DNA of 16,914 nt from Globomyces pollinis-pini (lineage: Eukaryota; Chytridiomycota; Chytridiomycetes; Rhizophydiales; Globomycetaceae), in contig MU621442.1 of NCBI GenBank assembly GCA_025399215.1, positions 1 through 16,914 of the forward strand. The letters run 5' to 3'. Below the pieces are notes generated by a model. It worked only from the letters and a program-made list of their open reading frames with translations. It was not told where the DNA came from and made no database searches. The position numbers and the translations under genes were made by a program. Below are positions 12,372-15,689 of this stretch, in pieces (the first letter of the stretch is position 1; the number at the start of each line of letters is the position of its first letter).

Positions 12372-13868
12372 TCAAAGATCTACAACATAATTACCCGGAA
12401 ACTGCCCTTCCCGATCTCCAATTCTTCCAATCCACCTACAATCAACTAATCAACGATTACCAATCATTTGCGTCTGCTTTACGTTCCAAAACAATGATTT
12501 TATCATCACGTTTAAAACTCAAATCACCCCTACAAATGAGTATGAAAGTTCATTACGGCGCTTGAGCTTCAAAATCATAGAGAGCCAATACCATATCAAC
12601 TCTTGGCTGGTAACTACTACTAGATGGTTCTGTAGGTAGTGGACGAGGTTTTTCAGTCGATGCTCGGCCCAATTCAGCTGAAGGTCTTGCAAATGTCAGT
12701 GGGGCCGGGTTGGCGGTTCCACCTACATCATACGCTGGTGGTGATTCTCCCATTGATGCTTTATACACCATCGGTTTCGTAATCGTCAATTGATTAAACA
12801 ATCGATCTGTTTCGTCTTGACAATCTTTAAATCCATCCAAAGCACTGGTATTCAAATTAAACTTTGCATTTCCGATTTCATAAAAAATCGTATAAAGTGT
12901 TTGATACACTCGAACTTGATAATTGTAAAATGTCAACAAACAAGGTTCAATGAAATCCTTCCTTAATGACAAAAAGACAGATAAATCTTGCTTTAATTGT
13001 ATGTTTATCGCATTGAAGATTCTGGAGGCTTGATCGAAATCAACCTAACATTAATCAAAGTGGGTTGGTACTTCTGCTTGTGCTAATTTCTTTTCTTCTG
13101 CAGCCGTGCGAACTTTTTCTCTTAGTTTGTGGACTGTTTCTCCATGTCGGTCATAATCCACTGTAGATTTAGAAAATGGTTCAGTTAATTATGGCAAATT
13201 AGTATTGAAGTGATGCATTAAGGAATTATGGGAAACTTACACAATTTATGAGATCGTTTGACCATCATCTTATTAATCTTTTCCAATATCCCAATAAACT
13301 CCAAAGTTGGTGCAACCACCAACCGTTCAATTTGTTCCAAATCATTTTCTAATGTAATTGTTGCAGTTGTCATGGCTTTCAAAAAATCCGTTTGAGGTGT
13401 ATTTGATTGTAATTCGAAAGCTGCCTCGTCATTCTGGTTGTTAGGTGTATTGAGTTACATCTGTTAATGGTAAATATATGGTGGTGAACGTCTTGGCTAG
13501 TGAAGTTTGCTTTTCCAACATTTTCGATAATCCTGTTCTCTGTCAGTACTTTCTTGTTCTTTTATTACCATCTTTGAACGCTTTTGAATCTAATATTTAA
13601 TGATAACATTCATACCTGTAAGGTTATAAAATTAACCAGAACTTGGATTGATATTTACCTAGAAAATGAACATCATCACATTTAACCTATTCAGTTATTT
13701 CAATAGTAGAAACATACCTGCAGCTAATTTTTTTCCAAACTTCTCGATATGTTTAAATTGGTCTTCCAATTGTAAATATTCTTCATCTTTTGATCCTTGA
13801 CCACCAGCTGATTTCGATATCATTGCTGGTAGTCTGCTCACTGCTTTCGTAAATCCTTTCCAAGACAT
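12372..13868 (-). CDS. BAR-SH3 protein, Rvs167/amphiphysin type
   Basis: Eight exons: 13868-13718, 13589-13569, 13532-13459, 13433-13241, 13160-13072, 13044-12557, 12529-12461 and 12435-12372. They total 1149 nt and 382 residues, and every junction is GT...AG. Introns are 128, 36, 25, 80, 27, 27 and 25 nt. The start MSWKGFTKA matches the Rvs161/Rvs167 N-BAR start. The BAR domain spans about residues 1-245, with helices including RSHKLLDYDRHGETVHKLRE. A Pro/Ser-rich linker covers about 260-325. The SH3 domain, about 328-382, begins ALYDF at 330-334, has WW at 362-363, and ends FPGNYVVDL. Introns 6 and 7 split the SH3. Such proteins bind curved membranes and link endocytic sites to actin. Yeast Rvs167 is about 100 residues longer. 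An annotator that rejects 25-27-nt introns would truncate it near 12553 and lose the SH3. Confidence 0.93.
13569..13589 (-). other. 21-nt microexon in the BAR domain
   Basis: Exon 2 of the BAR-SH3 gene encodes only DSKAFKDG (with split codons at both ends). It sits between the 128-nt composite intron and a 36-nt intron. The conserved BAR sequence requires it. Confidence 0.8.
13590..13717 (-). other. Composite intron: three GT...AG units back to back
   Basis: Intron 1 of the BAR-SH3 gene, 128 nt, divides exactly into units of 59 nt (13717-13659), 43 nt (13658-13616) and 26 nt (13615-13590). The internal borders are TTTCTAG|GTAAAT and CCTTACAG|GTATGA, each a strong acceptor directly followed by a strong donor, with no exon between them. 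Only removal of all 128 nt restores the Asp codon and the BAR frame. This looks like recursive splice sites or serial intron insertion. Confidence 0.8.
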
Positions 13869-14169
13869 TTCTATCTTTTATCTGATTTCTGGTGTTTTTT
13901 GTTGGTAAAGTGAAAAAGCACAGACTAACCTACCATGCTCATTTAACATTTTGGTTTGAATTCATCAAGACTTTAATGATTTGCTATCGGTAAACTCGAA
14001 ATGAATCTGACCATACTCAAAGTAAAAATGTCGAAATCTACTATTGATTCTTCGGTACTTATTGATCAACAGCAATGAACTAATGAATGAAATCAATCAG
14101 TGTAGTCTCAACAAAACGAATTAAACTTCCAATTGCTGCACGCGCTAACAAGTAGGTTGTAATTCATTT
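13869..14169. promoter_or_regulatory. Spacer between the UBC9 3' end and the BAR-SH3 start
   Basis: About 300 bp, AT-rich, and no gene seen. It must hold the UBC9 3' end and the BAR-SH3 promoter, both on the minus strand. No TATA box or clear regulatory motif was recognised. Confidence 0.4.
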
Positions 14170-14796
14170 TTATTCAACAGGTCGATTGGCTTTTGCTTGT
14201 TCTAAAATTCGTTTATCATAAGCAACTCGATCTTTTTTGAACAATACATAAGCATCTGTTTGAGCTGGTGAATTAGGATTAGGATCCCCCAGCAAATCTT
14301 GAATTCCTAATAAAATCTGTTTAATTGTGATTCTAAAGAATTAAACTCAATCAATTACGCTGGTTTCCAATCTTCATCTTCATTGACTATAGACAAACAA
14401 ACTGTTCCTGATGGATAAACGTTTGGATGAAATAATGGAGGCTATGATAGATAAGTGATCAATTAAATTTAATACTGTGAAAACACATTTTGGAGGTTTT
14501 TGACTGATATTGGTTAGTACATCAAGTGTTACGGGTAGTCTTCAGGAAATTGAAGTTTTAATTTATAAACACCTATTATAAATCACAAAAAAGTATACCT
14601 CCTTCCCAGTTAGTTCCGACCTTTCCAGGAATTCCTACTGACCATTGGGTTAAACTAATAGCATTATTGATTTTATCAGGTTTTGCGAAAAAACCGAATG
14701 CTAAATCCAGATTAATGAATTCTAATTACGATGATCCTTTCTCCATTGTTTTCGTTCTTCAGTCAGTCGTTGGATACAGATTGATTGTGATGCCAT
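14170..14796 (-). CDS. UBC9: SUMO-conjugating enzyme E2 (UBC9)
   Basis: Six exons: 14796-14730, 14700-14599, 14572-14533, 14503-14476, 14441-14359 and 14332-14170. They total 483 nt and 160 residues, close to the usual 157-158. Introns are 29, 26, 29, 34 and 26 nt, all GT...AG. The protein starts MASQSICIQRLTEERKQWR and has the E2 fold throughout: IPGKVGTNWEGG, the HPN motif at 84-86, and catalytic Cys94 in GTVCLSI. The IVNEDEDWKPAITIKQILLG segment is typical of UBC9. The family's charged insert and QAKANRPVE-type tail are kept. It accepts SUMO from the E1 enzyme and passes it to target lysines, mainly in the nucleus. No domain is missing and no stop is present, so it is probably functional. 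It is divergent from the DUF427 gene. Confidence 0.96.
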
Positions 14797-15120
14797 CGGA
14801 CTATAAAACTTTTGAGGAAACTTTAATGAGACTCAAAATTTTATCATCAAATTTCATTCATAAACCTTTATTGAATTCGTACCATATTATGAAATACTGA
14901 TGATATGGGAAAGGAATTATGATTTATCAATGAGTGCTGCATAATTGATTTGGAATAGTTACTTCCCGGACAAGTCAAATCACTATAATATTTATCATTC
15001 TATTCATATAAGATATAACTAATAATAGAATGTACTCTGATGGCTCTGAATTATGAAATATCCAAACTTTTTATTACGATCACGATCCAATCTCTGCAAG
15101 TGAAATAACTCTTTCCCTCA
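14797..15120. promoter_or_regulatory. Divergent promoter region, UBC9 / DUF427
   Basis: A 324-bp spacer between two divergent start codons (UBC9 to the left, DUF427 to the right). It is AT-rich and shows no unmistakable TATA box or operator. It must carry both promoters. Confidence 0.5.
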
Positions 15121-15689
15121 ATGAATTTAACTAAAAAGCAACTAGAGTATCATCGCCAAAAATGGATAAATCGAGGGATAACAAGGCCTCCATTTGCAAA
15201 AGAAACTACAAAAGATCAAGAGTCCGTTTGGGATTATCCAAGTAGCTCATCAATTTTAACCCAATAGGACCACCTGCAATCTTAAAAGATACACGGCATG
15301 TCAAGGTACTAATCAATGGAACACTTGTTGCTGATTCTAAAAATACTATGAGGGTTTTAGAAACTGCATCACCACCAACTTTTTACATTCCAAAGGAAGA
15401 TGTTAAAACAGAATTATTGACTGAAATTCCCAACAAGCAATCTCTTTGTGAATGGAAAGGATTAGCTACATATTATTCTTACAATTCAAAAGTTGTTGGA
15501 TGGACCTACAAATCACCTTTTGAACAATTCAATGAAATTGCATCACATATTGCATTTTATGCTTCTTGCGGTACTTGCATGGTAGATGGAGAGACTGTTG
15601 TTCCTCAACCCTCTGATTTTTATGGTGGATGGGTTACATCGGAAGTAGTTGGACCGTTTAAAGGTGAACCTGGTACAAGTGGTTGGTAA
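15121..15689 (+). CDS. DUF427 domain protein
   Basis: Exons 15121-15241 and 15268-15689 join over a 26-nt intron (GTAGCT...CAATAG) through a split Arg codon; 180 residues. Without the splice the frame stops at TAG 15265-15267. Family hallmarks in order: ESVWDYPRPP (35-44), a V-x-V-x-I-N-G-x-L-V-A-D-S strand, RVLETASPPTFYIP, LCEWKGLATYY, AFYASCGTCMVDG, and FYGGWVTSEVVGPFKGEPGT near the end. DUF427 proteins are small beta-rich proteins, common in bacteria and fungi, with no settled biochemical role. The N-terminal 34 residues (basic and Gln/Lys-rich) are an extension typical of fungal members. I see no signal peptide. It is complete and without damage. Confidence 0.93.

What the first reader, a model, noticed from the sequence alone, without database searches (positions are those of the whole stretch)
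12372..15267. Ultra-short spliceosomal introns (25-29 nt) dominate three adjacent conserved genes
Rebuilding the BAR-SH3, UBC9 and DUF427 genes by protein conservation needs 13 introns. Nine are 25-29 nt (BAR: 25, 27, 27, 25; UBC9: 29, 26, 29, 26; DUF427: 26), two are 34 and 36, and the others are 80 and 128. All are GT...AG, and several show a branch-like CTAAC or TTAAC/TTAAT 6-12 nt before the AG. Each joined frame closes exactly. The three introns whose length is a multiple of three (27, 27, 36) all contain an in-frame stop, so retention would always be detected. Fungal introns are usually above about 45 nt; sizes like these are known from ciliates, nucleomorphs and some microsporidia. This implies a spliceosome tolerant of minimal introns.
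Basis: partly seen in the sequence, partly recalled or inferred. Interest (0 to 1): 0.85.

Follow-up and report, generated by a model that had tools for sequence, protein, structure and literature searches.

The report
Tandem arrays of minimal fungal introns
A chytrid fungus interrupts its genes with unusually tiny introns (about 28 letters), and some of its longer introns turn out to be several of these tiny introns joined head to tail, which suggests that its splicing machinery removes them in small fixed-size bites.

Summary
The spliced BAR-SH3 protein equals, 382 of 382 residues, the deposited Globomyces pollinis-pini (Chytridiomycota) protein BC833DRAFT_635642 on a contig of the window's length. 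The pattern is genome-wide: with no length preference, a self-trained gene finder puts 274 of 428 introns at 24-32 nt, and an annotation-free scan peaks at 25-29 nt.

The "128-nt" BAR intron is four abutting GT...AG units (31+28+43+26). In 217 kb, predicted internal exons of length zero number 18, against at most 2 at any length from 1 to 36. Genome-wide, TAG|GTA...TAG|GTA...TAG with an inner unit of 24-34 nt occurs 197 times, against 7 with 39-49 nt. The largest array seen, 12 units in 365 nt, splits the DFG motif of a MARK-type kinase. Inner units carry a branch-like site as often as single introns do.

Best reading: a spliceosome adapted to about 28-nt introns removes arrays unit by unit, as recursive splicing through zero-nt exons. 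Stepwise removal is inferred; RNA is needed.

The parts
12372..13868 (-). BAR-SH3 (Hob1/amphiphysin-like) gene, ATG at 13868, stop ending at 12372, 7 introns
   Evidence: joined protein identical to BC833DRAFT_635642; BAR and SH3 domains
13590..13717 (-). 128-nt intron that is an array of four abutting GT...AG units
   Evidence: sequence; decomposed by the gene finder
13687..13717 (-). array unit 1, 31 nt
   Evidence: GT...AG
13659..13686 (-). array unit 2, 28 nt
   Evidence: GT...AG
13616..13658 (-). array unit 3, 43 nt (longer than the usual unit)
   Evidence: GT...AG
13590..13615 (-). array unit 4, 26 nt
   Evidence: GT...AG
13533..13568 (-). BAR intron, 36 nt, in-frame stop if retained
13434..13458 (-). 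BAR intron, 25 nt, with CTAAC
13161..13240 (-). BAR intron, 80 nt, no AGGT inside: a plain longer intron
13045..13071 (-). BAR intron, 27 nt, in-frame stop if retained
12530..12556 (-). BAR intron, 27 nt, in-frame stop if retained
12436..12460 (-). BAR intron, 25 nt, inside the SH3 domain (not called by my gene finder; needed for the deposited protein)
14170..14796 (-). UBC9 gene, 5 introns
14701..14729 (-). UBC9 intron, 29 nt
14573..14598 (-). UBC9 intron, 26 nt
14504..14532 (-). UBC9 intron, 29 nt, with TACTAAC
14442..14475 (-). UBC9 intron, 34 nt
14333..14358 (-). UBC9 intron, 26 nt
15121..15689 (+). DUF427 (PF04248) gene, 1 intron
15242..15267 (+). DUF427 intron, 26 nt

Best explanation
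The window belongs to the chytrid Globomyces pollinis-pini, whose U2-type spliceosome works mainly on introns of about 24-34 nt. Such an intron carries a GTA(A/T) donor, a loose TTAAY/CTAAY branch site mostly 17-21 nt downstream and a TAG acceptor 6-10 nt further on. Single introns can be copied head to tail in place, giving arrays of 2 to 12 GT...AG units that abut as AG|GT with no exon between them. The most likely mechanism is unit-by-unit removal: each unit is recognised across itself and excised as a separate minimal intron, which brings the next unit's donor or acceptor against the exon. This is recursive splicing through zero-nt exons at the scale of 28-nt steps. Shown by sequence: the short introns, the arrays, their unit size, a branch-like site in most units, homology across three arrays outside the window and an identical deposited protein across the window's. 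Inferred: stepwise excision, and copying by slippage or unequal exchange.
For: Short introns. Arrays in 217 kb not chosen for arrays (20 stretches of 10 kb plus the window): 11 predicted arrays with 29 units; 18 zero-length internal exons against 16 in total for all lengths 1-30; without the window 10 arrays and 15 junctions. Cutting the 45 intron regions of 45 nt or more into abutting units gives 18 junctions; dinucleotide-shuffled versions give 1.0 on average, at most 6 in 200. Genome-wide, inner units of 24-34 nt 197 times, of 39-49 nt 7 times. Arrays fall inside conserved sequence that a solved relative reads without a gap: SAMHD1-like (5 units), PhyH dioxygenase (10 units), MARK-type kinase at DFG (12 units). 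For function of each unit: 54 inner units found by pattern alone have YTNAY at the right place in 78% against 31% when shuffled; 485 single introns 76% against 33%. In 45 inner units with no detectable similarity to any unit of their own array it is 73% against 28%, so it is not just inherited from a fresh copy. For copying: 12 of 33 arrays hold a pair of units more alike than 99% of random intron pairs, 2.7 expected; in a FabG-like gene five 27-nt units in a row are related, the last three almost identical.
Against: No RNA data. Larger pieces can be removed at once: the BAR gene needs its 80-nt intron, and 28 of 37 predicted introns over 40 nt contain no AGGT. The gene finder uses splice-site scores, so the unit features, apart from the pattern-only set, are partly selected by the method; it also makes false arrays: one of the 33, the 24+34 pair in the SAMHD1-like gene, removes residues that homology supports. 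Array loci outside the sample were picked because they matched a pattern. For the two-unit patterns the reversed-pattern control exceeded the real count (483 against 259; 501 against 153), so I rely on the spacing control of the three-unit pattern. 21 of 33 arrays show no similar pair of units, so their origin by copying is not shown.
Confidence: 0.7

Rival explanations
1. Each array is spliced once, from the first GT to the last AG. The inner AG|GT units are relics of tandem duplication (an intronic minisatellite whose period is one intron) and have no role.
For: Arrays with closely related units exist (L037, L039, L044, L045). A plain 80-nt intron is needed by the BAR gene. The coding sequence is the same either way.
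Against: Inner units that have diverged beyond recognition keep a length near 29 nt and a branch-like site at single-intron frequency. Spacing of inner junctions is tightly limited, 197 against 7. The outer sites are not stronger than the inner ones (small numbers, inner sites partly selected by the pattern).
Confidence: 0.22
2. Units are spliced in a mixed way, with some left in as optional in-frame exons, so arrays add protein variants.
For: The deposited PhyH model BC833DRAFT_47563 contains 19 residues that equal units 4 and 8 of the ten-unit array read as exons, with inner AG|GT junctions used as splice sites.
Against: The three relatives aligned lack those residues, which fall between conserved IFK and QPDIGG; a gene predictor filling an unusually long intron explains it equally well.
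Confidence: 0.06
3. The short gaps are sequencing or assembly errors.
For: None found.
Against: Genome-wide length peak with splice and branch consensus, identical deposited protein (from the same contig, so it shows how the gene was annotated rather than independent sequencing), units of one array differ in sequence.
Confidence: 0.01

Closest known systems
Ultra-short introns of ciliates (Paramecium, about 25 nt; PMC5014332 abstract and term search, PMC12862383 passages)
   Same: Narrow peak near 25 nt, GT...AG, genome-wide.
   Different: Here a fungus, mode 28-29 nt, about 3.9 predicted introns per kb of predicted coding sequence, and some introns joined into arrays. The terms tandem, concatenat and recursive did not occur in PMC5014332; in PMC12862383 tandem occurred twice, for intron gain and for 3' splice sites.
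Recursive splicing at zero-nt exons (ratchet points) of Drosophila (PMC8605326 abstract, outline and search listing; PMC5126111 and PMC2773006 search listings only)
   Same: AG|GT junctions with no exon, expected stepwise removal.
   Different: There within long introns; here steps of about 25-36 nt, up to 12 in 365 nt, in a compact fungal genome, with a complete minimal intron in every step.
Fungal stwintrons (PMC12403724 abstract, PMC7138796 passages)
   Same: Complex fungal introns made of U2 introns removed in succession.
   Different: Stwintrons are nested, one intron interrupting a splice element of another. Here units are complete and side by side, and can number 12.
Introners (PMC9860276, abstract in the search listing and a term search)
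   Same: Multiplication of introns.
   Different: [quoted passage not shown] here copies sit next to each other at one site. The terms chytrid and Globomyces did not occur in the paper's main text.
SPF45/RBM17-dependent short human introns (PMC8363638 abstract)
   Same: Short introns with little room for a polypyrimidine tract.
   Different: Human model intron of 56 nt. SPF45 was not searched for here; SF1 and a U2AF65-like gene are present.

Membership tests
U2-type spliceosomal introns | GT...AG ends, branch site, joined reading frame conserved | tested here: met
U2-type spliceosomal introns | U2 snRNA with branch-pairing sequence in the genome | tested here: met
   U2 at C213, 135.4 bits, with TGTAGTAT
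U2-type spliceosomal introns | U1 and U6 snRNA present | tested here: inconclusive
   no Rfam match, with controls silent too; a U6 pattern with one mismatch allowed also gave none
Ultra-short introns as in ciliates | Genome-wide mode below 35 nt | tested here: met
   on 217 kb
Ultra-short introns as in ciliates | Introns of length 3n depleted or rich in stops | tested here: inconclusive
   3n lengths are somewhat fewer, but my gene finder would read a stop-free 3n intron as exon
Recursive splicing | AG|GT zero-nt exons inside a longer intervening sequence | tested here: met
Recursive splicing | Stepwise intermediates in RNA | not testable with these tools
   no RNA data
Recursive splicing (Drosophila ratchet type) | Located in very long introns | tested here: not met
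   arrays seen span 51-365 nt
Stwintrons | Internal intron interrupts a donor, branch or acceptor element of an external intron | tested here: not met
   junctions read AG|GT between complete units; nested parses of every array were not enumerated
Introners | Similar copies inserted at many separate sites | not tested
   similarity was only compared within arrays, against random pairs of single introns

The most novel reading that the evidence does not exclude
Globomyces has intron concatemers: introns grow in whole minimal-intron steps because its spliceosome efficiently handles about 28 nt at a time, so a long intervening sequence stays removable by being built as up to 12 complete introns in a row that are excised one after another through zero-nt exons. 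This would be an intron growth mode, and a recursive splicing mode, that I found described nowhere.
Probability: 0.6. Interest if true: 0.93.

Novelty: new variant of a known kind. Interest (0 to 1): 0.88.

Why it matters
Introns of 24-34 nt as the rule in a fungus of the order Rhizophydiales give a comparison to ciliates for how small a U2 intron can be. The arrays look like intron growth in whole-intron steps, with units ranging from identical to unrecognisable, which would make one route of intron gain and of recursive splicing directly testable with ordinary RNA sequencing. They also disturb gene models: the model of the near-identical BAR protein of Globomyces sp. JEL0801 loses sequence next to these introns, and a deposited G. 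pollinis-pini model translates two array units.

Tried and rejected
Two-unit pattern with second spacing 48-58 nt as control (153 hits against 259): poor, because two further units also have that spacing, and the reversed patterns gave more hits than the real ones in both calls; replaced by the three-unit pattern with 39-49 nt as control. Gap-spike test with high splice-score thresholds: too few units (389 at the lowest threshold, one pair at gap zero), uninformative. Rfam searches for U6 and U1 and a U6 pattern: nothing, uninformative. Testing 3n depletion: biased by the finder. Outer against inner site strength: inner sites looked as strong or stronger, but were partly selected by TAGGTA. 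An SSU rRNA search meant to help name the organism did not complete; the name comes. The kinase search listed no G. pollinis-pini record among its 120 rows (of 5,104 matches), so I cannot say how that gene is deposited.

Not in print: searches showed me no report of ultra-short introns or of intron arrays in Globomyces or other chytrids. I saw listings (one search showed 15 of 121 papers, 20 of 24), and beyond them only the abstracts or passages named under Closest known systems, plus passages of PMC11649378 (590 species; no occurrence of chytrid or Globomyces). The library lacks most subscription journals and all preprints, and genome-portal statistics were not seen.
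Full report
WHAT WAS CLAIMED AND WHETHER IT HOLDS. The window is a whole contig (C353, 16,914 nt) of an 18.55 Mb assembly in 459 contigs. I rebuilt the three genes from the sequence and checked the coordinates by joining the exons. The BAR-SH3 gene (13868 to 12372, minus) has introns of 128, 36, 25, 80, 27, 27 and 25 nt; UBC9 (14796 to 14170, minus) 29, 26, 29, 34 and 26; DUF427 (15121 to 15689, plus) 26. 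The joined BAR-SH3 protein is identical, 382 of 382 residues, to BC833DRAFT_635642 of Globomyces pollinis-pini, whose contig is also 16,914 nt long. This names the organism (Chytridiomycota, Rhizophydiales, Globomycetaceae). UBC9 aligns to solved Ubc9 chains with a one-residue gap. DUF427 gains domain score when its first exon is joined.

GENOME-WIDE TEST. In 216,914 nt (10 kb from each of the 20 contigs C1-C20, plus the window, all without N) I counted GT...AG segments whose removal keeps 25 codons open on each side while retention breaks the frame. GTAA and GTAT donors peak at 25-29 nt; GTGA and GTGT donors show no clear peak; control donors AATG and TATG, and the control acceptor GA, show none. 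A simple gene finder that trains itself on long open frames and gives all lengths 12-200 equal weight predicts 428 introns in 79 genes, 274 of them 24-32 nt, mode 28. With the learned length distribution it predicts 549 in 91 genes, 464 at 24-32 and 512 at 22-38 nt. It is not a curated annotation: it missed the last BAR intron, and other predictions may be wrong. The sample is not random, since it comes from the first-numbered, long contigs. Splice consensus: G|GTA(A/T), weak at +5 (G 26%), TAG acceptor, branch-like TTAAT, TTAAC or CTAAT with A mostly 6-10 nt before the end and 17-21 nt from the donor. U2 snRNA with TGTAGTAT, SF1 and a U2AF65-like gene (pieces below the family's cut-off) are present; the predicted models of the last two contain introns of 25-31 nt themselves, plus one of 126 nt in the U2AF65-like gene.

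INTRON ARRAYS. The 128-nt BAR intron reads GT...AG|GT...AG|GT...AG|GT...AG. I then looked for zero-length exons. In the 217-kb sample, predicted internal exons of length zero number 18; lengths 1 to 30 together have 16, and no length from 1 to 36 has more than 2. They form 11 arrays: seven of 2 units, two of 3, one of 4 (the window's) and one of 5; without the window 10 arrays and 15 junctions. Cutting the 45 intron regions of at least 45 nt into abutting units gives 18 junctions; dinucleotide-preserving shuffles give a mean of 1.0 and a maximum of 6 in 200. Scaling 11 per 217 kb to the genome would give roughly 900 arrays, with wide error.

A GENOME-WIDE COUNT WITHOUT GENE MODELS. TAGGTA-N18..28-TAGGTA-N18..28-TAG matches 197 times on both strands (reversed pattern 49). 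Making the inner unit 39-49 nt instead, the same number of allowed lengths, leaves 7 (reversed pattern 43). Several matches can belong to one array. For the two-unit pattern the reversed control was larger than the count (483 against 259), and likewise (501 against 153), so that control is not matched to this genome and I do not use the two-unit counts.

ARRAYS LIE IN REAL GENES. I fetched 18 short stretches, 17 of them chosen from the pattern lists and one to complete a gene, and ran the finder: 22 arrays with 107 units, at least one in each of the 17 places. Together with the sample this gave 33 arrays with 136 units, in sizes 2 to 12. A SAMHD1-like gene has 27+32+30+28+25 nt between VSYY and VYLGATHHRFEHS, where the best solved relative aligns without a gap. 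A PhyH dioxygenase has ten units between IFK and QPDIGG, again without a gap in the relative. A MARK-type kinase has twelve units (26, 25, 34, 32, 32, 28, 29, 29, 32, 36, 28, 34; 365 nt) inside the DFG motif, with no gap there against MARK3. In the sample, arrays interrupt what look like kinases and SEC14-, Exo70- and TFIIH-p52-like proteins (these names are my own reading, not a search). Others without homology may be wrong too.

ONE INTRON OR MANY? The protein is the same whether an array leaves in one piece or unit by unit, so DNA can only argue. If only the outer ends mattered, inner units should lose their signals as they diverge. Of 54 inner units found by pattern alone, 78% have YTNAY at the right distance, 31% when shuffled; 485 single introns 76% and 33%. 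Among 45 inner units with no detectable relative in their own array the figures are 73% and 28% (units called with the help of splice scores). Inner units average 29.0 nt (sd 3.1) against 28.4 (2.8) in single introns. In closely related neighbours of equal length, changes fall on 52 of 190 body positions, 13 of 72 around the branch site, 1 of 36 in the first three and 0 of 36 in the last three (GT and AG are fixed by the definition of a unit). I therefore favour unit-by-unit removal at about 0.7. Against it, the 80-nt BAR intron and other predicted introns show that larger pieces can be removed.

ORIGIN. 12 of 33 arrays contain a pair of units more alike than 99% of random intron pairs, where 2.7 are expected from the number of pairs compared. 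A FabG-like gene has five related 27-nt units in a row, the last three almost identical, and the PhyH gene two identical 28-nt units. This fits tandem copying of a whole intron in place. The other 21 arrays show no similarity and may be old, or may have arisen otherwise.

DEPOSITED GENE MODELS. The deposited PhyH protein BC833DRAFT_47563 (299 aa) equals my spliced protein except for 19 extra residues, which are exactly the translation of units 4 and 8 of the array joined, with units 1-3, 5-7 and 9-10 left out. It thus agrees on the five single introns of 24-29 nt and implies inner AG|GT junctions as splice sites; I do not know whether RNA or a predictor decided this. The deposited BAR model of Globomyces sp. 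JEL0801, nearly identical elsewhere, lacks 31 residues after the place of the array, 18 residues after a 27-nt intron, and ends at the next 27-nt intron.

COMPARISON AND NOVELTY. Ultra-short introns as the rule are known from ciliates (PMC5014332 abstract; PMC12862383 passages). Zero-nt exons are known from recursive splicing in Drosophila (PMC8605326, abstract, outline and listing). Nested fungal introns are known as stwintrons (PMC12403724 abstract; PMC7138796 passages). I found no description of head-to-tail arrays of complete minimal introns, within the limits. I class this as a new variant of recursive intron organisation in a new host group.

Noticed in passing
L039:436-720 and protein P0219: The deposited protein BC833DRAFT_47563 translates array units 4 and 8 as 19 residues missing from the three relatives aligned with it.
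   Followed up: yes
P0002 against window 12372-13868: The Globomyces sp. JEL0801 BAR model drops sequence next to the place of the array and of two 27-nt introns, so its genome probably has them too and its annotation mishandles them.
   Followed up: partly
window 127-144, 2397-2408 and 3987-3998: Short runs of CCCTAA or TTAGGG, telomere-like, in the first 4 kb of the contig.
   Followed up: no
217-kb sample: A smaller class of predicted introns of roughly 60-200 nt, some with GTAAGT and TACTAAC; numbers too small to test (24).
   Followed up: partly
genome-wide: U6 and U1 snRNA were not found by Rfam models, nor U6 by a conserved pattern, while U2 was. An interrupted or divergent U6 gene is possible; the searches do not show absence.
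   Followed up: no
L040 (C102:3000-5000): The kinase with the 12-unit array has no G. pollinis-pini record among the 120 proteins listed, although Boothiomyces has a 620-aa one; the deposited model may be broken at the array.
   Followed up: no
window 9478-10848, minus: Long Q/S/N-rich open frame with one C2H2 zinc finger (Pfam PF00096).
   Followed up: no
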